From Wenzhouxiangella sp. XN24 (GTDB lineage Bacteria; Pseudomonadota; Gammaproteobacteria; Steroidobacterales; XN24), in NCBI RefSeq assembly GCF_011064545.1, contig NZ_JAAMFG010000036.1:124001-188000 (forward strand): 64,000 nucleotides of DNA, in the 5' to 3' direction. The notes below the pieces were generated by a model that did not search any database, had not been told where the DNA came from, and was given only the letters and a program-made list of their open reading frames with translations. The translations under genes were made by a program, and so were the position numbers. Within the stretch, counting starts at the first letter, position 1, and each line of letters starts with the position of its first letter. Shown here one piece after another: positions 1,929 through 41,283 of this stretch.

Positions 1929-2224
1929 CCGAACAAGTCGTCGAGCTGTCGCCGCGCCGCCTCGGCGGCCGGGTCGGCACCCCCCGCCGTAAGCCCCGGA
2001 CGCGCGCGGAACCAGCCGCAGAAGTTCGCGCGTGTCTTGTCCGACACGGGCTCCGCCACGGGCTCCCGGCACGCGTTGGCCTTGCCCGGGTCATAGAATT
2101 CGCACATCCGGCAGACGTGGAGTTCCGCGCGGCAGTGACGGCATTCGGCCGTGCGGGACAAGGGCAACGGCTCGTCCGCGACCTCGGTACCGCAGCGCCA
2201 GCAATTGAGAGCATCTCCGGGCAT
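1925..2224 (-). CDS. Small zinc-ribbon protein of unknown function
   Basis: A 99-residue protein preceded by a strong ribosome binding site (GGGAGG, seven bases before ATG). The N-terminal half has cysteine pairs typical of a zinc ribbon: CWRCG at residue 8, CRHC near 28, then CRMC near 38, plus two more Cys (ACREP and FCGWF). The C-terminal third is Ala/Asp-rich and probably disordered. The Cys spacing supports metal binding, but the family is not one I can name. It is convergent with the acyltransferase gene and overlaps its end. Confidence 0.7.
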   Translation of the reverse strand: MPGDALNCWRCGTEVADEPLPLSRTAECRHCRAELHVCRMCEFYDPGKANACREPVAEPVSDKTRANFCGWFRARPGLTAGGADPAAEAARRQLDDLFG

Positions 2225-2344
2225 GGTTCACCTCCCTGGGCGCCATTCTAGCCTCCCCATCAAGGGCCGCCAGAAGCTGCACTGCGCATCGATCGGACGT
2301 TACACTATGCTGCTAGGCCGCGAATCATCCGGAGAGCCGAATCC

Positions 2345-2869
2345 ATGAGCAGCTTCCGCCAGCGCCTCAAGCGCATCTACGTCGTCGTGATGATGCGCAT
2401 CGTCGGCTGGGGGCTGCGGGCGATGAGCCGCGTCGACCCGGTGGTACGGGCGGAAGCGGCCGGCTTTCCCGACGGCATGGTGATCGCCATGACCACCCTC
2501 CCGGACGGACCGGCCATGGTGCTGCAGAAAATCCCCGGCGGCGGGTTACGCTATCTCGGCGGCACCCTGCCCGCCGACACCGGGTTGAGCATCCGCTTCA
2601 AGCACCTGGACTACGCATTCCGGGTGTTCGCTTTCATCGAGAGCACCCCCACGGCGTTCGCGCGGGCCCGGATGGTCGTGGACGGGGACCTGCCTGCAGG
2701 GATCCGCCTGGTGCGCTGCATGTACCGCCTGGAAAGCGTGTTGATGCCGCGCTTCATCGCCGTACGGGGAGTGAAACGCTATCCGGCCGACCTCGGCCTC
2801 GGCGACAAGCTCGGATTGAATGCAAGGATCTACGGCCGTATCGCGCTCGACCTGGTGACGAGGAGCTGA
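2345..2869 (+). CDS. Conserved protein of unknown function, possibly SCP2-like
   Basis: A 174-residue protein with a hydrophobic amphipathic N-terminus (YVVVMMRIVGWGLRAM) that may associate with membrane. The central part (FKHLDYAFRVFAFIE, then AFARARMVVDGDLPAG) is loosely reminiscent of sterol-carrier (SCP2) folds, but this is a weak resemblance. A GGAGAG ribosome binding site precedes the ATG. It stops one base before the GTG of the alcohol dehydrogenase, so the two are almost certainly one operon. A role in presenting a hydrophobic alcohol or lipid substrate to the dehydrogenase would be inference only. Confidence 0.6.
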   Translation: MSSFRQRLKRIYVVVMMRIVGWGLRAMSRVDPVVRAEAAGFPDGMVIAMTTLPDGPAMVLQKIPGGGLRYLGGTLPADTGLSIRFKHLDYAFRVFAFIESTPTAFARARMVVDGDLPAGIRLVRCMYRLESVLMPRFIAVRGVKRYPADLGLGDKLGLNARIYGRIALDLVTRS

Positions 2870-2870
2870 C

Positions 2871-4055
2871 GTGAAAGAAACCTATTATGAGTTCTCCTGT
2901 TCCGTGAAGCTGATCGTCGGCGCCCGGGCGCTCGAGAACATCCCCTTCGAACTCGGCGCCATCGGCGCGAAAAAGCCGCTGCTTGTGACGGACAGGGGCG
3001 TCGCCGCCGCGGGGCTGGTCGATACGCTGCGCGAGATTCTCTCCACCGGCGGGCTCGAGATCGCCGCCGTGTACGACGAGGTGCCGCCGGACTCGTCGCT
3101 GACGGCCGTCAGGGCGATCGCCGCGATCTACCGGGACCGCGGTTGCGACTCGCTGATCGCGCTCGGCGGCGGCTCGCCGATCGACACCGCCAAGGCGGCC
3201 AACATCCTGGCGTCCTACCAGACCGATGATCCCGCAAAATACTCCGGCGTCGGCAACCTGCCCAGGCCGTTGAATCCCCTGCTGGTGATCCCGACGACCG
3301 CGGGCACCGGCTCCGAAGTGACCTACGTCTCCATCGTCAAGGACGAGGAGCGCGGCGTAAAGGTGCCTTTCGCCTCGCCGTTCCTGATGCCGCATGCCGC
3401 GGTGCTGGACCCGCGGATGACCCTCGGTCTGCCGGCGCAGATCACCGCGGCGACGGCCATGGATGCGATGACCCATGCCTGCGAGGCCTTCATCTGCCTG
3501 GCGAAAAATCCGATGAGCGACGCCTACGCCGCCGCCGCGGTGCGTGCCGTCAGCGAGAACCTGCTGCAGGTGCTCGACCGCCCCGGCGACGAGCAGGGCC
3601 GGCTTGCGTTGGCCCAAGGCGCCGCGATGGCCGGCATCGCCTTCTCGAATTCCATGGTCGGCCTCGTGCATGCGCTCGGCCACTCGGTGGGCGCGATGTG
3701 TCATGTGCACCACGGCACCTGCATGAGCATCCTGTTGCCGGCCGTCCTGGAGTACAACCTCGAGGCCCGCCGCGACGTAATCGGCGAACTGCTGCTGCCG
3801 CTGGCGGGGGCCGATATCTATGCTTCCACGCCCGCGTCGGAACGCGCCGAAAAGGCCATCGCCCGGCTGCGCTGGCTCAAGGACGAGATCCATGCACGCT
3901 GCGGCCTGCCTCGCACTCTCTCCGAGACCGGCAAGGTCGAACAGTCACAGCTCGAGGAGATCGCCGAGATGTCGCTGGACGACGGCTCGATCATCTTCAA
4001 CCCCGTCGAGGTCGATCGCGAGGAGGCGCTCGCGGTGCTGCGGAAGTCCTGGTAA
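2871..4055 (+). CDS. Iron-containing alcohol dehydrogenase
   Basis: A 394-residue group III (Fe-dependent) alcohol dehydrogenase, full length for the family. The nucleotide-binding segment is GGGSPIDTAKA near residue 100; metal ligands fit the MDAMTHACEAF region and HALGHSVGAMCHVHHG. It catalyses NAD(P)-dependent interconversion of alcohols and aldehydes; the substrate cannot be read from sequence. GTG start with a GAGGAG site six bases upstream. It lies one base after an unassigned protein, apparently translationally coupled. Given the AlkB hydroxylase elsewhere in the window, a fatty alcohol is a possible substrate, but this is inference. Confidence 0.93.
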   Translation: MKETYYEFSCSVKLIVGARALENIPFELGAIGAKKPLLVTDRGVAAAGLVDTLREILSTGGLEIAAVYDEVPPDSSLTAVRAIAAIYRDRGCDSLIALGGGSPIDTAKAANILASYQTDDPAKYSGVGNLPRPLNPLLVIPTTAGTGSEVTYVSIVKDEERGVKVPFASPFLMPHAAVLDPRMTLGLPAQITAATAMDAMTHACEAFICLAKNPMSDAYAAAAVRAVSENLLQVLDRPGDEQGRLALAQGAAMAGIAFSNSMVGLVHALGHSVGAMCHVHHGTCMSILLPAVLEYNLEARRDVIGELLLPLAGADIYASTPASERAEKAIARLRWLKDEIHARCGLPRTLSETGKVEQSQLEEIAEMSLDDGSIIFNPVEVDREEALAVLRKSW

Positions 4056-29679: not shown

Positions 29680-30285
29680 TCAGCGTCCTGCCGGCGTCCT
29701 CCGGGCGAAACCGAGCAATGCGAATGACATCCCGAGCAGACCCAGCGTTCCCGGTTCGGGCACGGGCACGGGCCCAGCCACCAGGGGCTCAGTGACCAAG
29801 TCCGTCGGCAGCCAGTCGCCGCCGAGCGTGAAAGGCTGGCTGCCCGGCGTACCTGTGCCACGCCAGGTAAAGAGCATAGTGAAGCCCGAGACTCGCGAGC
29901 CCGGAGCGACGGCTCCTTCGTTCCCTTGGTCGCAGAAAATACCCCCCACGCAGGCGTCATAGAAACCGAACTGATCGTCCGTGGGCGGGGGATCGAACAA
30001 CGGATCCGGCGCAGCCACCAGCACGCTCCATAAGTCCGGCCCCGCGAAGGCGTCCGGGTCCACTTCCACGTCGTCGCCGGTGCCCACGGTATCGAACGCG
30101 TACAAGGCCGGGTCGAACCAGATGGTGAACCAGTCGATCGAGGCATCCGTCTCGTTGCCGACCGTGTATGTGTACTGCCATTGATCGCCGCTGATGTTCT
30201 CGACCTCGTAGAAGATCGGGTTGGCGCTCGCCAGCGGCGGGACCAACATAAGTGTCGCGCCGATCAGTGCGGTAAACATCTTCAT
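29680..30285 (-). CDS. PEP-CTERM sorting domain protein
   Basis: 201 residues with a signal peptide (MKMFTALIGATLMLVPPLAS, cleavage after ASA) and the C-terminal tripartite sorting signal: VPEPGTLGLLG, a hydrophobic helix (MSFALLGF), then a basic end (ARRTPAGR). Exosortase EpsH/XrtA cleaves this signal in exopolysaccharide-producing bacteria, so the strain should have an exosortase elsewhere. The mature domain has about 130 residues of Trp/Tyr/Asp-rich beta-type sequence, with a Cys pair (CVGGIFC). GGAG lies six bases before ATG 30285. Adjacent to and co-directional with the giant RHS gene. Confidence 0.87.
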   Translation of the reverse strand: MKMFTALIGATLMLVPPLASANPIFYEVENISGDQWQYTYTVGNETDASIDWFTIWFDPALYAFDTVGTGDDVEVDPDAFAGPDLWSVLVAAPDPLFDPPPTDDQFGFYDACVGGIFCDQGNEGAVAPGSRVSGFTMLFTWRGTGTPGSQPFTLGGDWLPTDLVTEPLVAGPVPVPEPGTLGLLGMSFALLGFARRTPAGR

Positions 30286-30354: not shown

Positions 30355-33300
30355 TCAGTCGGCTACATCCCAGGAATCGAGCAGCCAGTAGTACGAAATG
30401 GCGAAGCTGAACGCCCGATTCCTGCCGCCCGTGCCACGCCCCGCCGTCGCAGCGATGCCGGCACGGTAACCAAAGCTGTACCGGCTCTCACAGCTCGTAC
30501 AGTCATCAGCGCCGTCGAAAATGCCTCCGGCTCCATCGGTGAAGTAGGTCGGCACCGGCGACCAGAACCCGGAGAGCGCTCCGGCTCCACCTCCGGCGAC
30601 CCCGACCTTACTGGTCAATTGCCCGGTCACCGATCCACCGTAGGACGCTGCCACGAAATAGCCCTGGTAGTGTTCGGGCTTCGGCGTGTTATAGATCGCG
30701 GATCGACCAACAATCGCGACCGTAACGCCGCCGCCCACGACACTCGCATCCGGCAGCGTGGCGGGAATGGAAAGCGAGGGACCGAAGAACAGGTAGTTAG
30801 CCCGCTCCTTGCTTTCAGGGCTATTGAACTGGAGGCGCTCGAGGCCGCCTGTGAAACCGATTCCCCAAGCATTGAGATTCGCGCTGAAGACACCGAAAGG
30901 CACGAACCTGGCATCGGGTCCACGGGCCTCTGAATTCAAGATCCGTCGCACGCCTAGGCCTCCCGCGACGAACTCTTCCGGCCCGGTTCGATACAGGATG
31001 TCGCCCACCGCAAAGAGCGTGCTCGCGATGGACAGCTGCACAATGACGCTCGCCAGTCGGAACTCCGTCTGGCCGCTCGGATCGGTGCGATTAATCGGAT
31101 CGCCACCGACATAAGCGTAGCGATTGATGGTGCGTGGCCGTAGCGGGTCGGGGGACGCGGAGTCCGCCGTGACGAAGCGACCTTCTCGCGGGTCATACCA
31201 TCGACTGCGCATGAACACCAGGCCCGTCTCGGGATCGGTCAGCGAGTTCGCATAACCCAGTTCCAGCGTTTCGGGTCCGCCGGACAGCACGCGCCCGTAG
31301 GCGTCGTAGTCGATCTGAGTCACCTCGCCGGCCCTGACCCGTGCCGTTACCGAACCGAGATGGTCGCGGACGTAGGCAGTGGGGATGCCCGCCGAATCGA
31401 TCGAGTGAGTGACGAACACGCCGTCATGGAGATAGCGTCGTATCTGGTCCCCGCTTCCGTCAGTCACTTCGAGGAGCATGGGCATGGCCGGAATGCTCCG
31501 GTCCCAGGTGAAGTAGCGTGTTTCGCTCCCGACGCGCCGGTAACGTAGCAGCCCGTCCGTGTGATATCCGTACGCGACGGTCACGGACTCAGGGCCAGTG
31601 CGTTCGTAAACGACGAGCCGATCCTGGGAGTCGTAGGTGTACCGCTCGGCGACCGACCCATCCGAACGTGAAATGAGGTTCCCGTTGGGATCCCAACCAA
31701 ACTCTACGCCGCCGGACTGCAAGAGTCGGTCGTTGTCATCGTATGTCCTGGACGTCGTCTGGCCGTCGCGGCTTACTGCGGCGATGTTGCCGTTGCCATC
31801 AAACGTATACGTCGCCTCTCTCAGGACCACGGCACCGTTTGAGACCGTCTCGGCGATGAGGCGCCCGCCGGCGTCGTAGCTGTAGTCGGTATCGACACCG
31901 TCATGGCGGGACACGCGAGAAATTCTGCCCGCATCATCGAACGAGTAATCATAGAACGCGACGATGTCCGCTCCCGACCGGAAGGAGAGAGATAGCGCCC
32001 GCCCCTTGCCATCGTAGTCATGCTCGCCTTCCAACACGCCGGCCAGCGTGAAACCGACGGGAATCCCCAGCGCGTTGCGATCGACGCTTGAAGCCACACC
32101 CCTGTAGCGGAGTGTTTCGACTCGACTGGCGACATCGTAGTCTCGCTCGGTCTCCCCGCTCGGAGTTGCGATGCGCGTAACGCGGCCGGTGTCGTCCCGC
32201 GTGTACAGCGTGGCGATATTCGCCCCGCTCTGCCATTGAGTCAGGCGTCCGAGTCCGTCGTACGCCATGCGCTCCGCGAGTGCCGGCCCGTCGTAGGCGA
32301 CGATTCGACCGCGCGCATCGTACTGGTAGATTTCACTGCCGCCATCCACCGTGCGCGTCAGCGTGCGTGCATCGTCGTCATACTGGAGACCGATTACCGT
32401 GCCATCGAACTTGGTGGACTGGATTACACGACCGCTCGCATCGTATTGGAGCATCCGCTGTTGCCCTAACGGCAGGGCGTGAGACGTCAGCCGGCCAAGC
32501 CCGTCATGCTCGAATCGGAGGACCTGCCCTTCCGGCATGGTCATGGTTTCGACAGACCCCAGCGAGTCGTACGCGAACTCGAAGGTCGAGCCCGAGCCAT
32601 CGGTAGATCTCGCGAGGCGACCGACCGCGTCGTATTCGTAGTTCCAGCGCTCACCGAGATCCAGATCGACATCGGTGGGGCGGCCCGCCGAATCGTACCG
32701 GGTCTCGCGCCGGACGCCGTCGGATCCGGTCAGCGCGACAAGCCGGTTCGCAGCATCGTACTCGTAGCGAACATCCATGCCGAAACTGTCGGTCTGGCGA
32801 ATGATTCGCCCGGCGTCGTCATACTCGATACTGCGCTGGCCACCGTCGGGTCGGGTCGTGGATACCCGTCTGCCCAGCACGTCGTAGGCATGGCGAGTCT
32901 CACCTCCCTGGGCGTTTCGTTCCACGACGAGCTGGCCGGCGGCATCGTATTCCCTCTGGAACGCCCCGAGGTCCGCCGGACGGATCTCCGTCTGATTGCC
33001 GACCAGGTCATGGACGAACTCGACGCCACCATGGTCGTCCGCCCCGACGCGGACCAGGCGGCCATTGGCGTCGTAGGTGCCGGCGAACACGGATACATCG
33101 CCACGCTCGACGGCATCGACATCACCGCGCAGGTTACGTTGTGCAGACCAGCCGAGACCCAACGGATTGGTCGCCCCAACCAGCTGGTCGTTCGCGTCGT
33201 AGGCGGCGGTGCTCGGGGCCGGGTCCCCGGGGCGTTGCTCAGCGATGAGGTTCTGGTTGGAATCGTAGCCGTACGCCCAGCTCAGGCTGGTCGATCCCGT

Positions 33301-36300
33301 TGAGGAACGCAATGTGGTTCGTTCTTCAACAACGTCGCCCAGCGTATTGAGAATCGACTGTTGAACATTTCCTTCTGCATCAGTCCGGCTTATCTGCCGG
33401 CCAAGCGCGTCATAGGCATAGCGTGTCGTGCGTCCCGTGGGATCGGTTTCCGCGATCAGGTTGCCGTCGAGATCGTAAGCGAAGGTAGAACGGTTGCCGA
33501 GCGGATCGATCTCGGCAATACGATTGCCGCGGGAGTCGTACTCGTACGCGTGCGTCGCGCCGTTCTCGTCGGTGAAGCGAAGTACGCGACCCGTGGCGTC
33601 GTACTCTATCGACCGCCGGTTACCGAGTGGATCCAGTGTTTCCGTGATCCGACCGGCGTCGTCGTACGCGTACTGCCAGGTCTCGCCGAGACTGTTGGTC
33701 CTCGAAAGCTGGTTGCCCTCGGTATCGTAGGTATACAGCGTCGCGTTCCCGAGCGCATCGACACGTCGCGTGACGTTACCGGCGTCGTCATAGCTCAGCT
33801 CGGTCACCGCGCCATTGGCCTCGATGACAGTTTCCGTCTGCTGCTCAATATCGCGCTCGAAGTGCACCGCCTGGCCCTCGCCATCCACGGTACGGACCAG
33901 CCGGCCATCCGCGTCGTATTCGTTTCGCACGACGCTTCCGGCGTCACCGCCGAGGATCTCCAGGACATTGTGTTTGCGATCGTATGCGTAGCGCGTCGTA
34001 TTTCCGTTACGGTCGACGTGGCTGCGCAGGTCGCCATTGCCATCGTAGACATAGCGCTGCACGTTGCCGGCAGGATCGGTGATCGCCGTGATGCGGCCCA
34101 GGTCATCCCGGTCGAACGCGATGCTGGCACCGCTAGAATGGAAAATCCCGTCCGCCTCGAAATAAAGAGTGTTTCCGTTCCGGTCGACCACGCTTTCGAC
34201 GCCATCGCTTCGACTGATGACGTACTGCGTGCCATTGGGCGCGGTATACCGAAAACGGTCGGGATCGAAAACTCGACCTGACACGTCATCGACGAGCTCT
34301 ACCGCGCCGGGCTGCGGATCCAGGATGGACAGGATTGTGTTATCGAGCACCTCGAGCTGGCCGCGTGTTCCCGGCCGAGGCGCGAAGCTTGCCGAAAGCC
34401 GCGACGGCGGGAACGGGACGAGCGGCGAGGTGGCAGGCGTCACGACCATATCGAACGACTCGACTCGTCCGTCGGGCAGACGCAGGCTGACAACGGTTCC
34501 CGCGGTCGGACGAAGCGCGAACACGAGTCCCTGGCGATCCACCCGCCAACCCTCGCCGGCCGTGCGGTTGGCGCGGATTCGCAGGGACTGGACCCCAACA
34601 CTCCAGCCGACGCCAAAATCGCTGTTCGTCTTGTCCCGACTGTCGTAGGTCCGGCTGACCCTGATTGGCAAACCCGCCAGCGGCACTTCGAGATCGACAT
34701 AAGCCAGTGAGAAATGGCCTACCTTCATGCCCCCGTCGACCTGCACCGTGACCTCGTCAACGGTCTGGTTGCCGCCCCGGTCGAACACCGTCAGGCGCAA
34801 TGTGTACAGGTCGTTGATCAGCAGTGTCGGATCGAACCGGCCGAGCACGCCGTTCGTGACCGGCGACGTGGACGTCACGATCGGCGTGAACACGGTCTCG
34901 CCCGCCAGCGCGTACGCCAGCTCGTACTTCAGGAAGTTGTCGTCGGTTGCCGTGCCGGTCACGTCGACCGGCTCGGTCACCGTCGCATCCGCAGCTGGCG
35001 CCGAGATCGTCACAGAGGGCGGCACCTGGTCGCCGGCAATACGCGCCACGACCTCGATCGTCGCCGAGCCGGAGACGCCGTCGCGTGTCGCCGTCGCGGT
35101 GTAGCTGCCGGGCGTCGGTGTGCTGAAGCTCGGACCGTTGGTCCATGCAACAACGCCGGTCAGGTTCTGGCTGGTACCGTCCGCGAACACGCCTGTTGCG
35201 GTCAGGTTCACTGGCTGGCCGGCCAGCACCGTGGAGCTTGCGGGAGCGACGACCAGGCTCTCGAGATCGAGATCGCCGTCGATGCCATCGCAGTTGGCAT
35301 CGATGCCGTCGGCAGGATCATCCACCCCGCCGGGGAAAATGGAGCCATCGCCGTCGTCGCAATCGCCCTGGTTCGGTGTGAATCCGTCGCCGTCCGCATC
35401 GATATCCTCGGGACCGGGGCCACGGGACACGACCAGGTCGACTTCGCCGCCGAACTCGGCCACGGCCCCGCCCGGAGGCGACTGCTCGGCGACGGAGCCG
35501 GCGGGCACGGTCGGGTGCGTGGCCTCGCGAACCGAGCCCACGAGCAGGTTGGCGGCGGCCAGGGCATCCTCGGCCGCAGTCTGCGGGCTGCCGACCACGT
35601 CAGGCACGGTCACCGGTTCGCCGACGACGAGGGTGAATGATTGCACAGTGGTGAAGCCGATCGTGTCGCTCGCGAGGAGGCTCACGGCGTATTCTCCGGC
35701 CGCATCGGGCGACCAGTTCAGTCGTCCGGTCGAGGACAGCGTCATCCCCGGCGGCGCGGCGGCCAAGGTCAGCGTCACCGAGTCGCCCGGGTCGAGATCG
35801 ACCACGCGGGCGCCATACTGGTATGGGAAGCCGATGGTGGTCAGGGTATCCGGCTTGCTCAGGAACGCCGGCGGCGTGCCGGCCGGCTGCACGTCGAAGG
35901 TCACCGTGGCGACGTTCGAGGTGCTCTGCCCGTCCGAGACCTGGTAGGTGAAGGCATCGGTCGTGCCGGCCAGCGGGTCCGGCGCCCGCCTGATCAGGTT
36001 CCAGCCGTTCAGCTCCGGCCTCAGCCAGTGCGGCGTCGGGTTGGTCAGTACCTTGCCGTCAGCGTCGACGTAGCCCTCGTGGAAGATCCATTGCGTGCGG
36101 ACCGGCGGCGCCGGGGGCAGCGGCTTCGATTCGATGCCCCCGATCACGCGCACTGTGCCGTTCAGACCACCGTTGAACGACGTGACAATCTCCGCCGCGC
36201 CGTCCCCGTCGACGTCGGCGATGGTCGGGAAGCGATGGAACGGCGCATACCGGTCCACCGGAATGAACTCGAGCAGGCTGCCATCGCGGCCGCTGAAGAT

Positions 36301-39300
36301 GTAAAGCCCGTTGCCGTTGGCGGCATTGAGATGAACCACCATGTCGTAGGCGCCATCGGCGTTGGCGTCGAATGCGACCACGCCCTGGAGCGCGCCGCCG
36401 GCAAAACCCGAGGGCTCCTGGAACCGGTCGCGATCCGCGTGACTCCAGAGCGGCGTGCCATCGGTATCGAACACCGCCAGGTAGCGCGGCAGGCCCGAGC
36501 TGAAGATACTGTAATCGCCATCCATCCAGCCGAACTCGACCTGGCCGTCGCCGTCGAAGTCGGCCACGGCAATCGCGCTGGTGGAGGGTGTCTCCCGCGC
36601 GATTTCCCAGGCCAGCGTGCCGTCGTGTTCGAACAGGTAGGTCCAGTCCCTGCTGCGGCCGATGATCTCGGGATAAGGATCGTCGTCGAAGTTCGCGACG
36701 GCCGTATGCAGGTACAGGCCCTGGCCGGGCGTCGTCGTGAAGGCATCGCGAATCGGCAGCCGGAACTCGAATTCGCCGTCGTGACTGACGACGTGGTTGT
36801 GGACGATGACTTCCATGGTGCCGTCCAGGTCGAGATCGACGACGGCCACTGGCTGGTTGAGTTCCCGGTTACGCTGCGGCTCTGCCTCGTATTCCCACTT
36901 CAGGGAGCCGTCCGCACTGTTGAAGACCGTGACACCGGCACACGAAACACTCGGGCCGCAGCCGAAAACATTCCACGACACCAGGATCTCGACAGCCCCA
37001 TCGCCGTCGAGATCGGCGAATGTCGGACCAGAGGTCGACTCAGAGTATCCGAGGTAGGTCCGACCGGTGGGCTCGGAACCGCCGTTCCCCGGCCAGGCCA
37101 GCGTACCGTCGTGGTGCGCCGCAATCAGTGAGGGCGTCGGATCGAAGCCGCCGTTCGGCTGCCGGAGACGATGCGCGATCATTTCGAGATCACCGTCGCC
37201 GTCGATGTCGAGCAGGCCGAGGTGGGAGCCCACGCGCACGCCGCCGACATCGACGGCCTGCACCAGCGGGCTGCTTCCGAGTTGGACGGAACAGTCCTCG
37301 GCATTGAGGATGAAGAACTCACCAGTGAAGCTGCGCGTGATCCAGGACATGCCGACGATCTCGGTGTCACCGTCGTTGTCGACGTCGCCGACGGCCAGCG
37401 TGCCATTGGTTCCGAGGCGGTCGGGGGAGAAGGGCAACTCACACTGGGTCTGTGTGTAGACGCGCTGCGGGTCGGACACCAGGTTGTAACCGTTGCGGCC
37501 CGGCTGCAGCCACGCGGGTTCGGGCTCGGCGAGCACGTTCGCTGCGTCGTCGATACGCGTCTGGTCAAAGATCCACTGGTTGCGCACGCCCGGCGCCGGT
37601 GGCAGCGGGTTCGCACTGGTGCCGCGCCACACGCGCGTCGTGCCGGTGCCACCGGTATTGAAGGAACTGATCAGCTCAGCGGTGCCATCGTCGTCGATGT
37701 CCGCGATGGTGATGAAACGCTGCTCGGTGAAATAGGAATCGATCGTGACGAACTCGAGCACCGAGCCGTCACGGCCGTCGAAAATGTAGATGCCGGTGTC
37801 GGCGGGCACGCCGTTGTCGTAGTGAACCACGAGGTCCGCGGCGCCGTCGGCATTGGCATCCCAGGCCGTGATGTTCGGGCCCGTGAAGCGGTTGATCGCC
37901 GGCGGGGACAACGCCGAATTGCCGGCATGGCTCCACAGCTGCTGCCCGTCGGTGTCGAAGGCGACCATGTACCCGGGGCTGTTGCCGGTGCCGGCGAGGA
38001 AAGCGAACTCGACCTCTCCGTCACCGTCGAGATCCGCCACGGTGAGCTGGCTCTGGCCGTTGTTGGCGAACGGCTGCTGCCAGATCAAGGTGCCGTTCTG
38101 TTCGAAGAGATAGACGTTCTGCTGGTCGTAGGCGACGATCTCGGCGAAGGTATCGCCATCGAAGTCGGCCACGGCGCTGTAGAGATTGGTGGTGATTCTC
38201 GAGGAGCCACCGAGATAGCCTTCGACGGGTAATTCGAACTCGAGACCACCGAGGTGGTCGACGACCTGGGTGTGGAGGATGATCTCCATCGTGCCGTCGC
38301 GGTCGAGGTCGGCGACGACCGGCGGCTTGTAGTCGGCGTCGCCGAACTGGTCGGGGCCCGTGAACTCCCACTCGATGCTGCCGTCGCGGCTGTCGTAAAC
38401 GGTGACGCCACTTTGTCCATAGGCCGAGGTGCTGCCGATAATCCGCCACGGCATGACGATCTCCACCACGCCATCCGCGTCTAAGTCGGCGAAGGTCGGG
38501 CCGGTGTAGCGATAGGAACCGCTGCTGGAGCCGGCCGTCGGGAAGCCGAGGATCGGGCTGGTCTCGCTGCCGCCGTCGCCCGGCCACGCGAGCGTGCCGT
38601 CGTGGTGCACCGCCAGCAGGTGGCGGCTGTCGAAGTATCCGCCCTGGTCCTGCGGCAGGGCTTCGCGCGGCGCGATGATCTCGAGATCGCCGTCACCGTC
38701 GATATCGAGCAGGCCCGGATGCGAACCCTGCGACAGGCCGCCGGCCGCAACGACCGCGGGGCTGGTCGGGAGCTCGGGCGTGCAATCGGCCGCGTTCAGG
38801 ACCCAGAGCTCGGCGCGGCCGGCGCTGGTGATGAAGTTGTAGCCGACGAGTTCGGTCTCGCCGTCGTTGTCGACGTCACCGACGGCGATGGTGCCGTTGT
38901 GCTGGAAGCCTCCCGCCGAGATCGGCAATTCGCATTGCAGCTCGAGTTCCACCGGCCCGATCGTCTCGGGCAGTCCGGGCGTGTAATCGAAAGACCCGTC
39001 CGCCCTGAAGTCGAGTGTGCCGTTGGCAGTGGTGGTGACCAGGGACGCCGACAGCGGGTCTCCGTCGGGGTCGCTGTCGTTCGCCAGCACGCCCGGGGCG
39101 GCCACGGAAGCCGTTTCACCGATACGCGCTTCGTACAGGTCGTCGATGGCTACGGGCGCGCGGTTTGGCGCCACGACATTCACGATGGCGCTCTGCAGCG
39201 CGGCGGCACCGGCGGCATCCGTGACTTCCACGGTGACGTCATGGGCGCCGACCTGCGCGGCCGCCGGCGTCCACTCGATCAGTCCGGACGGCGAAAGCGT

Positions 39301-41283
39301 CATGCCGGAAGGTGCAGCGGGCAGCGCGTAGCTGAGGATATCGCCGGCATCCGGATCGCTGGCGTCCGTCTGGATGGACAGGGATTGTCCAATTACGACC
39401 GTGCGCGACCCGATCGGCGCGAGTGTGGGCGGCTCATTGTCGGTCGGTGTGAACGGCGCGCTGCGCACGTCGATGCTGAAGGTGTAGGAGTCGCTCAGTC
39501 CGCCGCTGTCGGTCACCCGCACCGTCACCGGCACCAGCGCCGGGCTCCCGCCGGCGTTGTAGAGGAAATCCCCGCTGGCCGGGTCGATGCTCGCGCCCGC
39601 AGGCGCCGACACCAGACTGAAGGCAAGCGTGTCACCGGCATCCGGATCGACGGCAAAGATGCGAAACGCGAGCGACGCGCCGACGAAGGTCACGCGGTCG
39701 CCCACAGCCACCAGCGCCGGCGGGTTGTTGTCCGTAGCGGCCGTGACAATCACGGCCGCCGGTGCACTGTCGAGCTCGCCGTCGTTGACGACCAGGCTCG
39801 CCGTGTAAGTGCCTTCCACGTCGGCGACGAAGCTCGGCGAAACGGCCGTCGCGGAACTCAGGGTCGCGCCGCTGCCGGCGGGCCGGAGCAGCGTCCAGAG
39901 GTAAGTCAGTTCGTCGCCATCGGGGTCGCTGGACGGGCTGCCGTCGAGCTGGATGGTGTCCCCCGGCGCCGGCTGCGACGGGCTTGCCGTGGCGGCCGCC
40001 AGCGGCGCCTGGTTGGCGGCGACGGCCGTGATCACGGCCGTGTCGGGTGCGCTGTCCACGCTCCCGTCGTTGACGATCAGCTGCGCGACATAGAGGCCGG
40101 CGACGTCAGTCATGAACTGCACGGAGGGGCCCAGCGGGGTCGCGAGTTCGGCCGCACTTCCCGCGGGCCGGGACAACAACGACCAGAAGAACTCCAGCGG
40201 ATCGTCGTCTACATCGAAAGAAAACTCTCCGTCGAGTGTGACCGTCTCGCCGGCTTCCACTTCCTGGTCGTCCCCGGCATCCGCCACGGGCGGCGAGTTC
40301 GAGGTCGTGACGAGAGCCGTGTCCGGTGCACTGTCGACATAGCCGTCGTTGACCACGAGTTCGACAGCGTATTCGCCCGCCACGTCCACGACAAAGCTGG
40401 TGTTCTCGCCGGAGGTCGAATCCAGCGCGGCGCTGCTTTCAGCCGGCCGTGCGGCCAGTCTCCACCTGTAGGTCAACGCGTCGCCGTTGGCGTCGAAGGA
40501 ACCGGCGCCGAAGAACTGCGCAGTCCCGCCGACCGGCACCGTCTGGTCGAGCCCGGCATCCGCAACGGGCGGGGTGTTCTGGCTCGACACCACGACAAGA
40601 TCGGCCGCGCTGTCGAACTCGCCGTCGTTGACGACGAGGCGGACCACGTAGTTGCCCGGGCGGTCCGCGACGAATCCCGGCATGACCGAGGTCGGGTCAT
40701 CGAGCTCGGCCGTGCTTCCGGCGGGCAGCTCCGTGAGCTGCCATGCATAGCTGAGCGGATCGCCCTCCGCGTCCGTCGAGCCGCTGCCGTCGAGTTGCAC
40801 CCGGTTGCCTGACTGGAGCGCCTGGTCGGGGCCCGCTTCGGCGACCGGGGGTGTGTTGGCCGGTTCCCCCGGGTCCGCGGTGAAATTCCAGACGATGCTC
40901 GACGGATTGAACCTGAAGCGGCGGTTCTGCCGGAACGTGAAGGTGTCGTCCGGCGTGACCATCGCGCCGGCCGGGATCGCGCCCGCATCGACGTCGCCGT
41001 CCCGTATGGAGGTGTTCCGTGAGGTACTCGTGGCGACGGCCCTGACGTTGGCGAGCGCCTCACCGTCATTTCTGATCGTGATGCGGTACGTGTAGTCGAA
41101 GTCCATTCGACCGACGCGGCTTTGCCCGACGAATTCATACTCGACCACCGCGAGGTCCGAGACATCGGCCCGCGGGGTGACGCCGGGGAGAAAAAGCGCC
41201 AGCCCGAGCAACAGGCTGGTGGCGTTGATGAAAGCGCGGGGCCTGGACCCCGCCAATCGATGGCGGCCGAAAACTGACATCAT
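30355..41283 (-). CDS. Giant secreted RHS/YD-repeat protein with Ig-like and FG-GAP repeats
   Basis: 3642 residues with an N-terminal signal peptide (residues 1-40, ends PRADV). Order (approximate): DUF11-like start 41-140; four PKD-type repeats from 142, 236, 329 and 423; two cadherin/Ig-like repeats from 518 and 615; a cadherin-like domain from 706, interrupted by two 497-residue FG-GAP/VCBS copies (782-1760) and resuming at 1767; PASTA-like segment 1893-1960; MopE-like metal-binding motif (DADGDGFTPNQGDCDD) 1958-2003; two more Ig-like domains; RHS N-terminal part from 2182; about 20 YD repeats to 3320; RHS core ending in NRTDPSG at about 3403; unknown C-terminal domain 3404-3642. GGGGGGAAAG precedes ATG. 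YD repeats have lower GC than surrounding genes by eye. Confidence 0.93.
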   Translation of the reverse strand: MMSVFGRHRLAGSRPRAFINATSLLLGLALFLPGVTPRADVSDLAVVEYEFVGQSRVGRMDFDYTYRITIRNDGEALANVRAVATSTSRNTSIRDGDVDAGAIPAGAMVTPDDTFTFRQNRRFRFNPSSIVWNFTADPGEPANTPPVAEAGPDQALQSGNRVQLDGSGSTDAEGDPLSYAWQLTELPAGSTAELDDPTSVMPGFVADRPGNYVVRLVVNDGEFDSAADLVVVSSQNTPPVADAGLDQTVPVGGTAQFFGAGSFDANGDALTYRWRLAARPAESSAALDSTSGENTSFVVDVAGEYAVELVVNDGYVDSAPDTALVTTSNSPPVADAGDDQEVEAGETVTLDGEFSFDVDDDPLEFFWSLLSRPAGSAAELATPLGPSVQFMTDVAGLYVAQLIVNDGSVDSAPDTAVITAVAANQAPLAAATASPSQPAPGDTIQLDGSPSSDPDGDELTYLWTLLRPAGSGATLSSATAVSPSFVADVEGTYTASLVVNDGELDSAPAAVIVTAATDNNPPALVAVGDRVTFVGASLAFRIFAVDPDAGDTLAFSLVSAPAGASIDPASGDFLYNAGGSPALVPVTVRVTDSGGLSDSYTFSIDVRSAPFTPTDNEPPTLAPIGSRTVVIGQSLSIQTDASDPDAGDILSYALPAAPSGMTLSPSGLIEWTPAAAQVGAHDVTVEVTDAAGAAALQSAIVNVVAPNRAPVAIDDLYEARIGETASVAAPGVLANDSDPDGDPLSASLVTTTANGTLDFRADGSFDYTPGLPETIGPVELELQCELPISAGGFQHNGTIAVGDVDNDGETELVGYNFITSAGRAELWVLNAADCTPELPTSPAVVAAGGLSQGSHPGLLDIDGDGDLEIIAPREALPQDQGGYFDSRHLLAVHHDGTLAWPGDGGSETSPILGFPTAGSSSGSYRYTGPTFADLDADGVVEIVMPWRIIGSTSAYGQSGVTVYDSRDGSIEWEFTGPDQFGDADYKPPVVADLDRDGTMEIILHTQVVDHLGGLEFELPVEGYLGGSSRITTNLYSAVADFDGDTFAEIVAYDQQNVYLFEQNGTLIWQQPFANNGQSQLTVADLDGDGEVEFAFLAGTGNSPGYMVAFDTDGQQLWSHAGNSALSPPAINRFTGPNITAWDANADGAADLVVHYDNGVPADTGIYIFDGRDGSVLEFVTIDSYFTEQRFITIADIDDDGTAELISSFNTGGTGTTRVWRGTSANPLPPAPGVRNQWIFDQTRIDDAANVLAEPEPAWLQPGRNGYNLVSDPQRVYTQTQCELPFSPDRLGTNGTLAVGDVDNDGDTEIVGMSWITRSFTGEFFILNAEDCSVQLGSSPLVQAVDVGGVRVGSHLGLLDIDGDGDLEMIAHRLRQPNGGFDPTPSLIAAHHDGTLAWPGNGGSEPTGRTYLGYSESTSGPTFADLDGDGAVEILVSWNVFGCGPSVSCAGVTVFNSADGSLKWEYEAEPQRNRELNQPVAVVDLDLDGTMEVIVHNHVVSHDGEFEFRLPIRDAFTTTPGQGLYLHTAVANFDDDPYPEIIGRSRDWTYLFEHDGTLAWEIARETPSTSAIAVADFDGDGQVEFGWMDGDYSIFSSGLPRYLAVFDTDGTPLWSHADRDRFQEPSGFAGGALQGVVAFDANADGAYDMVVHLNAANGNGLYIFSGRDGSLLEFIPVDRYAPFHRFPTIADVDGDGAAEIVTSFNGGLNGTVRVIGGIESKPLPPAPPVRTQWIFHEGYVDADGKVLTNPTPHWLRPELNGWNLIRRAPDPLAGTTDAFTYQVSDGQSTSNVATVTFDVQPAGTPPAFLSKPDTLTTIGFPYQYGARVVDLDPGDSVTLTLAAAPPGMTLSSTGRLNWSPDAAGEYAVSLLASDTIGFTTVQSFTLVVGEPVTVPDVVGSPQTAAEDALAAANLLVGSVREATHPTVPAGSVAEQSPPGGAVAEFGGEVDLVVSRGPGPEDIDADGDGFTPNQGDCDDGDGSIFPGGVDDPADGIDANCDGIDGDLDLESLVVAPASSTVLAGQPVNLTATGVFADGTSQNLTGVVAWTNGPSFSTPTPGSYTATATRDGVSGSATIEVVARIAGDQVPPSVTISAPAADATVTEPVDVTGTATDDNFLKYELAYALAGETVFTPIVTSTSPVTNGVLGRFDPTLLINDLYTLRLTVFDRGGNQTVDEVTVQVDGGMKVGHFSLAYVDLEVPLAGLPIRVSRTYDSRDKTNSDFGVGWSVGVQSLRIRANRTAGEGWRVDRQGLVFALRPTAGTVVSLRLPDGRVESFDMVVTPATSPLVPFPPSRLSASFAPRPGTRGQLEVLDNTILSILDPQPGAVELVDDVSGRVFDPDRFRYTAPNGTQYVISRSDGVESVVDRNGNTLYFEADGIFHSSGASIAFDRDDLGRITAITDPAGNVQRYVYDGNGDLRSHVDRNGNTTRYAYDRKHNVLEILGGDAGSVVRNEYDADGRLVRTVDGEGQAVHFERDIEQQTETVIEANGAVTELSYDDAGNVTRRVDALGNATLYTYDTEGNQLSRTNSLGETWQYAYDDAGRITETLDPLGNRRSIEYDATGRVLRFTDENGATHAYEYDSRGNRIAEIDPLGNRSTFAYDLDGNLIAETDPTGRTTRYAYDALGRQISRTDAEGNVQQSILNTLGDVVEERTTLRSSTGSTSLSWAYGYDSNQNLIAEQRPGDPAPSTAAYDANDQLVGATNPLGLGWSAQRNLRGDVDAVERGDVSVFAGTYDANGRLVRVGADDHGGVEFVHDLVGNQTEIRPADLGAFQREYDAAGQLVVERNAQGGETRHAYDVLGRRVSTTRPDGGQRSIEYDDAGRIIRQTDSFGMDVRYEYDAANRLVALTGSDGVRRETRYDSAGRPTDVDLDLGERWNYEYDAVGRLARSTDGSGSTFEFAYDSLGSVETMTMPEGQVLRFEHDGLGRLTSHALPLGQQRMLQYDASGRVIQSTKFDGTVIGLQYDDDARTLTRTVDGGSEIYQYDARGRIVAYDGPALAERMAYDGLGRLTQWQSGANIATLYTRDDTGRVTRIATPSGETERDYDVASRVETLRYRGVASSVDRNALGIPVGFTLAGVLEGEHDYDGKGRALSLSFRSGADIVAFYDYSFDDAGRISRVSRHDGVDTDYSYDAGGRLIAETVSNGAVVLREATYTFDGNGNIAAVSRDGQTTSRTYDDNDRLLQSGGVEFGWDPNGNLISRSDGSVAERYTYDSQDRLVVYERTGPESVTVAYGYHTDGLLRYRRVGSETRYFTWDRSIPAMPMLLEVTDGSGDQIRRYLHDGVFVTHSIDSAGIPTAYVRDHLGSVTARVRAGEVTQIDYDAYGRVLSGGPETLELGYANSLTDPETGLVFMRSRWYDPREGRFVTADSASPDPLRPRTINRYAYVGGDPINRTDPSGQTEFRLASVIVQLSIASTLFAVGDILYRTGPEEFVAGGLGVRRILNSEARGPDARFVPFGVFSANLNAWGIGFTGGLERLQFNSPESKERANYLFFGPSLSIPATLPDASVVGGGVTVAIVGRSAIYNTPKPEHYQGYFVAASYGGSVTGQLTSKVGVAGGGAGALSGFWSPVPTYFTDGAGGIFDGADDCTSCESRYSFGYRAGIAATAGRGTGGRNRAFSFAISYYWLLDSWDVAD
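35990..38940 (-). repeat. Tandem 1.5-kb duplication encoding two FG-GAP/VCBS modules
   Basis: Within the giant RHS gene, unit 1 (about 37450-38940) and unit 2 (about 35990-37449) encode parallel sequences: both start at QCELP (Cys codons 1491 bases apart), share GTIAVGDVDNDG/GTLAVGDVDNDG, LGLLDIDGDGDLE, HHDGTLAWPG, FADLDGDG-type repeats and end near QWIF...W-x-x-P. The units are similar but diverged, so the duplication is old. Each module has several DxDxDG calcium-binding loops. Confidence 0.82.

What the first reader, a model, noticed from the sequence alone, without database searches (positions are those of the whole stretch)
30355..41283. Giant RHS protein whose cadherin-like domain is split by a duplicated FG-GAP insert
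Seen: text beginning NRAPVAIDDLYEARIGE stops after GSFDYTPG, and the matching end (DAFTYQVSDGQSTSNVATVTFDV) appears about 990 residues later. Between them lie two 497-residue FG-GAP units. Known: such a cadherin-like domain normally runs directly from FDYTPG into FTYQVSDG. Inference: the FG-GAP block was inserted into an existing domain and then duplicated. The whole architecture (PKD, PASTA, MopE motif, YD shell) is unusual.
Basis: partly seen in the sequence, partly recalled or inferred. Interest (0 to 1): 0.6.

Follow-up and report, generated by a model that had tools for sequence, protein, structure and literature searches.

The report
Split domain carrying twin propellers
A giant, probably secreted bacterial protein has one small structural domain cut open so that two doughnut-shaped modules, probably binders, are inserted in it; related bacteria share the design, which resembles known bacterial stickiness proteins but is here built onto a toxin-like shell.

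Summary
ORF 30355-41283 (-), 3642 aa, holds one cadherin-like (Big_9) domain cut before its last two strands: a profile of 16 natural uncut domains matches positions 1-63 at residues 707-769 and 68-91 at 1773-1796; four loop positions are replaced by about 1000 residues. Between lie two FG-GAP units, 48% identical. It is no private accident: of 30 ORFs in public genomes where a strong unit match adjoins either half, 28 have both (the search favoured such ORFs). Of these 28, 24 carry one unit; six proteins in all, this one included, have or probably have two in one domain. So the insertion is a family trait, against a recent event; the doubling is probably older than this species. Model and sequence make each unit an eight-bladed propeller of Bap1 type, a module that binds biofilm polysaccharide in V. 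cholerae (PMC10102183). Downstream are PASTA, MopE-like and Ig parts, an RHS shell with a PxxxxDPxG motif and a variable tip. Best reading: a split-domain side arm, as in RTX adhesins, holding polysaccharide-binding propellers off an RHS protein's stalk. Binding, projection and toxicity are inferred.

The parts
41167..41283 (-). N-terminal export signal-like segment (residues 1-39)
   Evidence: hydrophobic stretch read by eye in the translation; no signal-peptide program was run
39709..40851 (-). four PKD domains (residues 145-525)
   Evidence: Pfam PF22352 1.9e-39, four stretches; outer borders by eye
39169..39696 (-). He_PIG-type Ig-like region (530-705)
   Evidence: Pfam PF05345, best stretch 618-703, three stretches in the protein; borders by eye
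38977..39165 (-). first half of split cadherin-like (Big_9) domain (707-769)
   Evidence: uncut-domain profile positions 1-63, 62.2 bits; Cadherin_4 4.3e-15
37474..38937 (-). FG-GAP unit 1, predicted eight-bladed Bap1-type propeller (783-1270)
   Evidence: FG-GAP_3; profile of 20 homologues vs 6mlt 5.7e-42; model of homologue L041 Z 34.8 to 6mlt
35998..37446 (-). FG-GAP unit 2, same kind (1280-1762)
   Evidence: 48% identical to unit 1
35893..35967 (-). second half of split cadherin-like domain (1773-1797)
   Evidence: uncut-domain profile positions 68-91, 17.3 bits
35614..35886 (-). He_PIG-like domain (1800-1890)
   Evidence: matched after the split domain in homologues by phmmer
35425..35613 (-). 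PASTA domain (1891-1953)
   Evidence: PF03793 5e-12
35278..35406 (-). MopE-like metal-binding motif (1960-2002)
   Evidence: PF11617 0.0089, under cut-off; matched in 13 of 14 RHS homologues, not in L058
34738..35271 (-). Ig-like region before the shell (2005-2182)
   Evidence: Big_7 0.0025, under cut-off; matched in RHS homologues
31072..34737 (-). RHS/YD shell with PxxxxDPxG motif at its end (2183-3404)
   Evidence: PF05593 3.2e-100, TIGR03696 9e-18; PINRTDPSG at 3396
30358..31071 (-). C-terminal tip (3405-3642), no known domain; tips vary in the family
   Evidence: no Pfam/NCBIfam match; no relative in 146 other genomes searched; tips mostly unlike each other

Best explanation
A conserved cassette, a split cadherin-like domain with a Bap1-type propeller in its loop followed by He_PIG and PASTA, is built into a secreted RHS protein. 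The chain runs up a stalk of PKD and Ig domains, enters the cadherin-like domain, leaves it in the loop before its last two strands, makes one or two closed eight-bladed propellers, and returns to finish the domain. The propellers so stand off the stalk as a side arm and bind a polysaccharide, of the producer's own matrix or of a target cell, probably with calcium held in DxDxDG loops; the doubled unit would give two binding sites. The RHS shell beyond it encloses and cuts off a variable C-terminal tip, as in RHS polymorphic toxins. Shown: complementary domain halves, their conservation, propeller family and (by model) blade number, RHS shell with cleavage motif, variable tips. Inferred: rejoining of the halves in space, projection, polysaccharide binding, calcium, toxic tip.
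For: Complementary halves. Natural uncut domains have 6-10 residues at that place (20 hits, 16 distinct); members have 477-632 (one unit, some with extra modules) or 991-1002 (two). Both halves in 28 of 30 ORFs (a search that favoured them). Homologue model L041: pLDDT 85, pTM 0.85; ten-residue blocks of the first half 90-95, of the second 81-95. Best PDB match Bap1 6mlt, Foldseek E 3.6e-15, VIA Z 34.8, 2.8 A, 413 residues, 20% identity; profile match 5.7e-42 including the NQ...P.WL end. The Bap1/RbmC propeller binds VPS (PMC10102183, passages). Split Ig-like domains project ligand-binding domains in RTX adhesins (PMC12077191, PMC10865825, passages). Cleavage-type motif in 15 of 16 RHS members given; 105 of 105 core pairs but 3 of 105 tip pairs similar.
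Against: The model of this protein's own double unit is weak (pLDDT 65.6, pTM 0.51), and no tool gave coordinates, so that the halves touch was not measured. Similarity to Bap1 is 20%, and ligands of propellers change. Of 11 tips scanned with Pfam (own and ten others) none gave a toxin domain. No immunity gene was recognised, and none was looked for by profile.
Confidence: 0.6

Rival explanations
1. The propellers are part of the shell machinery, as the integrin-like propeller of TcdB/TcaC-type proteins that closes or docks the RHS cocoon.
For: RHS plus integrin-like propeller is a known pairing (PMC3482391, passages); a Tc B-C chain is among the fold matches (rank 34, E 5.4e-06) and YenB among the profile matches (E 0.0013); Pfam TcdB_toxin_midN matches 22 residues of L031's second unit under its cut-off (22.7 of 24.8 bits); teneurins have an NHL propeller beside the shell (PMC13018210, passages).
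Against: The best match is Bap1 by a wide margin. About 385 residues with He_PIG, PASTA, MopE-like and Ig regions separate the split domain from the shell. Of 29 family ORFs mapped, 14 have an RHS match and 15 do not (two of these, L037 and L056, run off their contigs, and L037 has the MopE part that goes with RHS). No SpvB among the Pfam matches.
Confidence: 0.1
2. The propellers are ligand-less bulk or a structural spacer in a giant stalk.
For: No ligand is known; the PKD and Ig domains around them are typical stalk domains.
Against: A stalk needs no insertion in a loop; the propeller is kept at the same place in diverse bacteria while its number and companions change; VCBS-like propellers are typically carbohydrate binders (PMC9218822, passage).
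Confidence: 0.15
3. Two separate partial cadherin-like fragments flank an in-line propeller block; no single cut domain exists.
For: The second half is short (24 matched positions, 17.3 bits); contact of the halves was not measured.
Against: The fragments are complementary, in order, and occur together in 28 of 30 ORFs; both are modelled with high confidence in L041.
Confidence: 0.07
4. Assembly or frame artefact.
For: Repeats often break assemblies; the gene of G034 is broken at contig ends inside the units.
Against: Open frame of 3642 codons; the same layout in other genomes, among them L031 with two units in an open frame of 3622 codons.
Confidence: 0.02

Closest known systems
Split Ig-like domains of RTX adhesins (AhLap, FrhA, MpIBP)
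   Same: An Ig-like domain discontinuous in sequence from which a binding domain buds (PMC12077191, PMC10865825, passages).
   Different: Here the host is a Big_9 cadherin-like domain cut before its last two strands, the cargo is one or two propellers, and the protein ends in an RHS shell and tip, with no RTX family among its Pfam matches.
Bap1/RbmC propeller of Vibrio cholerae
   Same: Eight-bladed propeller, closest solved structure and sequence, with a similar C-terminal end.
   Different: Bap1 and RbmC carry beta-prism and other domains (PMC10102183, passages); here the propeller itself is carried in a cut domain and may be doubled.
RHS polymorphic toxins and bacterial teneurin-like proteins
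   Same: YD shell, PxxxxDPxG motif, variable C-terminal part (PMC13018210, passages).
   Different: No known toxin domain in the tip, no NHL or SpvB among the Pfam matches, and a long PKD/Ig stalk with inserted propellers.
BapP of Pseudoalteromonas tunicata
   Same: Propeller together with cadherin-like and Big_9 domains in a biofilm adhesin (PMC12153261, passages).
   Different: Five-bladed, at the N-terminus and in line, not inside a cut domain.

Membership tests
Split-domain adhesin (RTX type) | Ig-like domain discontinuous in sequence | tested here: met
   Complementary profile matches; kept in the family
Split-domain adhesin (RTX type) | Halves rejoin in space; inserted domain leaves and returns at one side | tested here: inconclusive
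   High confidence of both halves in the L041 model, but no coordinates; own double-unit model weak
Split-domain adhesin (RTX type) | RTX nonapeptide repeats and type I secretion end | tested here: not met
   No RTX/HemolysinCabind family among the 19 Pfam matches; the chain ends in an RHS tip. Works like, is not a member
Split-domain adhesin (RTX type) | Inserted domain binds a ligand | not testable with these tools
   needs a binding assay
Bap1/RbmC-type propeller | Eight-bladed propeller related to Bap1 | tested here: met
   6mlt 5.7e-42, Z 34.8 for a homologue's model; that Cake8 and BamB, the next matches, are eight-bladed is recalled
Bap1/RbmC-type propeller | Binding to exopolysaccharide | not testable with these tools
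   known for Bap1/RbmC (PMC10102183, passages)
Bap1/RbmC-type propeller | beta-prism domain; 57-residue loop of Bap1 | not tested
   no such family named, but no dedicated search
RHS polymorphic toxin | RHS/YD shell with associated core | tested here: met
   PF05593 3.2e-100; TIGR03696 9e-18
RHS polymorphic toxin | cleavage-type motif and variable C-terminal tip | tested here: met
   15 of 16 members given have the motif; 3 of 105 tip pairs similar against 105 of 105 core pairs. Cleavage itself not tested
RHS polymorphic toxin | toxin domain in the tip | tested here: inconclusive
   no Pfam or NCBIfam match in the own tip; in ten other tips only two under-cut-off matches in L058
RHS polymorphic toxin | adjacent immunity gene | not tested
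   the next gene downstream looks like a PEP-CTERM protein; no immunity profile was run on purpose
TcdB/TcaC-type | SpvB domain before an integrin-like propeller | tested here: not met
   no SpvB among Pfam matches to E 0.01
Teneurin-like protein | FN-plug and six-bladed NHL propeller at the shell | tested here: inconclusive
   no NHL match; FN-plug not sought

The most novel reading that the evidence does not exclude
A cut cadherin-like domain works as a general exchange socket outside RTX adhesins: a fixed scaffold with one loop that accepts, swaps and stacks binding modules (one propeller, two copied propellers, a foreign propeller plus a native one, or a discoidin-like module plus propeller), shared between stalk proteins without RHS and RHS toxin-like proteins, so that polysaccharide-directed side arms aim an RHS shell at biofilm matrix or prey.
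Probability: 0.35. Interest if true: 0.7.

Novelty: new variant of a known kind. Interest (0 to 1): 0.5.

Why it matters
Split domains that push out binding modules have been described in RTX adhesins (papers). Finding the same layout in RHS proteins with a Bap1-type propeller suggests that it is a more general way for long bacterial surface proteins to present binders, gives a rule for spotting binding modules in sequence (look for cut Ig-like domains), and offers a testable link between biofilm polysaccharide and the aiming of RHS proteins.

Tried and rejected
Search for an empty site. Residues 1800-2182 (the flank after the split domain, without the insert) were sought in 369 genomes of the class (45 with a match) and 147 relatives (24 with a match). 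Most matches are single He_PIG, PASTA or MopE-like stretches in other proteins. The loci fetched (L110-L167, flanks of about 1.5 kb) and six longer stretches were mapped: where the flank matched well (G000, G073, G089, G034, G047, G106, G104, G412, G439) the units and second half are there; one RHS protein (L172, G209) has five PASTA, an Ig part and RHS but no split domain or unit, which shows that the cassette can be absent but is not an empty site; L173 (G037) begins after the place in question. Matches for which no locus was given were not looked at.

'Recent duplication in this species' was set aside, not excluded: a clade of the two own units costs 28 log units with p-AU 0.045 (borderline), while unit 1 plus unit 2 of L031 is rejected at 4e-59 and the four units of L032/L033 as one clade at 6e-05; {own unit 2 + other second units} and {own unit 1 + first units of L031 and G034} are allowed but not shown (p 0.37, 0.24). 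These groups were named after the tree was seen. The tree has several long branches.

The own genome has no second copy of the block. Extra inserts between first half and propeller gave only F5/8 type C matches under cut-off in G089 and L057 (E 0.0036, 0.0025) and nothing in L047 and L049; L046 gave a weak FG-GAP match. Paper searches for the combination listed nothing whose listing describes an FG-GAP propeller in a cut cadherin-like domain or an RHS protein of this layout; I saw listings, and passages of seven papers, no whole texts. The pattern search in the own genome found nothing, not even this gene, so the pattern was too narrow. In one search, gaps of 99-103 (L009, L012) and 284 (L015) also came up; by their layout I take them for pairings with the second half of a later domain, and 754 (L007) for a locus cut at its start; these were not counted. 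VIA's list is filled by propellers (model residues 76-520), so it says nothing on the cadherin-like part.

Full report
OBSERVATION. The frame 30355-41283 (-) reads 3642 residues without a stop. Pfam gives four PKD stretches, He_PIG, Cadherin_4 at 701-767, Big_9 with its best of five stretches at 707-770, FG-GAP_3, PASTA, a MopE motif under cut-off and fifteen RHS stretches. The first cadherin-like half is at 707-769, the second at 1773-1797, and two FG-GAP units of 488 and 483 residues lie between them, 48% identical over 500 columns.

ONE CUT DOMAIN. Twenty natural uncut domains of this type (16 distinct) occur in other ORFs of the fetched loci, with 6-10 residues between the parts that match the first and second half. 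A profile of these 16 (92 positions) matches this protein at positions 1-63 (residues 707-769, 62.2 bits) and 68-91 (residues 1773-1796, 17.3 bits, E 9.9e-07); L031 gives the same picture (1-63, 69-91) (the output was cut before the end of L041). Four loop positions are thus replaced by about 1000 residues. In the model of the homologue L041 five strands precede the cut and two follow it.

FAMILY. The search of 147 relatives gave a match in 23, mostly of the cadherin-like part alone, and found the propeller block in G073, G034, G106, G104, G047 and, more weakly, G089 besides the own genome. A scan of public genomes, capped at the best 80, gave 79 loci. In these, 65 ORFs have a unit match of 100 bits or more; 28 have both halves beside it, two have one (L034, whose contig begins inside the first unit; L050, whose second half is readable as DEFHYRVSDG but under threshold), and 35 have neither in this arrangement and are propellers in other settings (among the 35, L067 has a first half after its propeller). 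The query alignment and the profiles were made from split members, so the 28 of 30 is a favoured count; it also holds near-copies (L053, L054, L056) and pairs from one MAG (L035 and L037; L046 and L047). Several genes were found in both searches (for instance L002 and L031), so the counts must not be added. Members come from Woeseiaceae, Halieaceae, Lysobacterales, Wenzhouxiangella, tubeworm endosymbionts, and MAGs titled Planctomycetota, Deltaproteobacteria and Thermodesulfobacteriota (MAG titles may be wrong). Of 29 members mapped, 14 have an RHS match (for instance L031-L033, L036, L039, L040, L046, L047) and 15 do not (for instance L041-L045, L051-L055, L057, L091; L037 and L056 run off their contigs).

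ONE UNIT OR TWO. Gaps are 477-632 residues in single-unit members and 991-1002 in those with two. Two units in one cut domain: this protein, L031, L032, L033, L034 (end of a first unit at the contig start), and probably G034, whose gene is broken at contig ends inside the units. L046 instead has two cut domains with one unit each. The other 24 of the 28 have one. In the tree of 32 units the first units of L031 and G034 pair (100/99) and so do their second units (97/92), so that doubling predates these species. Own unit 1 falls with those first units and the single unit of L037 (95/97); own unit 2 is not firmly placed, and a clade of both own units is disfavoured only at p 0.045. The first unit of L032/L033 is 26.5-31% identical to the other units compared with it, apart from its copy in the sister genome: this slot holds a different propeller, so replacement or separate capture also happened. 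G089 has about 320 extra residues before the propeller with an F5/8 type C match under cut-off.

FOLD. The single-unit homologue L041 (605 aa, 20 sequences) was modelled at pLDDT 85 and pTM 0.85; ten-residue blocks of the first half score 90-95, of the second 81-95. Its best PDB match is Bap1 of V. cholerae, 6mlt (Foldseek E 3.6e-15; VIA Z 34.8, rmsd 2.8, 413 aligned, 20% identity, model residues 78-572), followed in VIA by designed Cake8 and BamB. The profile of the 20 homologues finds 6mlt at 5.7e-42, with the end of the propeller aligned. Own units hold eight and seven DxDxDG-like motifs by a loose pattern. The model of this protein's own 1111 residues is weak (pLDDT 65.6, pTM 0.51), with blocks of the first half at 78-89 and of the second at 66-88. 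Contact of the halves was not measured in either model.

FUNCTION BY ANALOGY. The Bap1/RbmC propeller has eight blades with a Velcro strand and binds the exopolysaccharide VPS (PMC10102183, passages). In RTX adhesins, split Ig-like domains project ligand-binding domains away from the axis (PMC12077191 and PMC10865825, passages). Together these give the reading that the cut domain here projects polysaccharide-binding propellers. The shell ends in PINRTDPSG, which fits the PxxxxDPxG motif described for RHS and teneurin-like proteins (PMC13018210, passages). Of the 16 RHS members given to (L035 and L038, cut by contig ends, were left out), 15 have such a motif by a pattern that allows three to five residues between P and DP; L046 has none. 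All 105 core pairs of these 15 are similar by BLAST, only three of 105 tip pairs are, all among L032, L033 and L040. The own tip has no relative in 146 other genomes. This is the pattern of RHS polymorphic toxins, but of 11 tips scanned with Pfam none shows a toxin domain.

SURROUNDINGS. The next gene downstream on the same strand, 29680-30285, is a likely PEP-CTERM protein (TIGR02595 18.0 bits, cut-off 16, E 0.0036), and the genome has an exosortase (201.6 bits). PEP-CTERM/exosortase systems are linked to exopolysaccharide producers (recalled), which would suit a matrix-binding role but proves nothing. Upstream is a gene of the fatty acid desaturase family.

VERDICT. A real, conserved architecture. 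Insertion is supported, recent insertion is not. It works like the split-domain side arms of RTX adhesins but is no RTX adhesin; the cargo belongs with Bap1-type propellers; the C-terminal half is RHS polymorphic-toxin-like. I rate it a new variant of a known kind.

Noticed in passing
29680-30285 (-): Likely PEP-CTERM protein gene 69 bases downstream of the giant gene, with an exosortase elsewhere in the genome.
   Followed up: partly
30355-34737 (-): Third-position GC is lower in the RHS part (0.74) and tip (0.71) than in the N-terminal part (0.83-0.87) and than in the other likely genes of the window (mostly 0.82-0.94 in a list that was itself chosen for values over 0.76), which may mean a different origin of shell and tip.
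   Followed up: no
L032 and L033: Endosymbionts of the tubeworms Lamellibrachia and Escarpia carry nearly identical two-unit RHS proteins whose first propeller is of a distant kind.
   Followed up: partly
L046: One 3999-residue frame with two successive cut domains, each with its own propeller, and without the PxxxxDPxG motif.
   Followed up: no
L170 771-1093 (G089) and L057 632-809: Extra module in the same loop before the propeller, F5/8 type C (discoidin-like) match under cut-off.
   Followed up: partly
own genome G000:C35:192681-192950: Another large frame (2368 aa) with a He_PIG-like domain like the one after the split domain.
   Followed up: no
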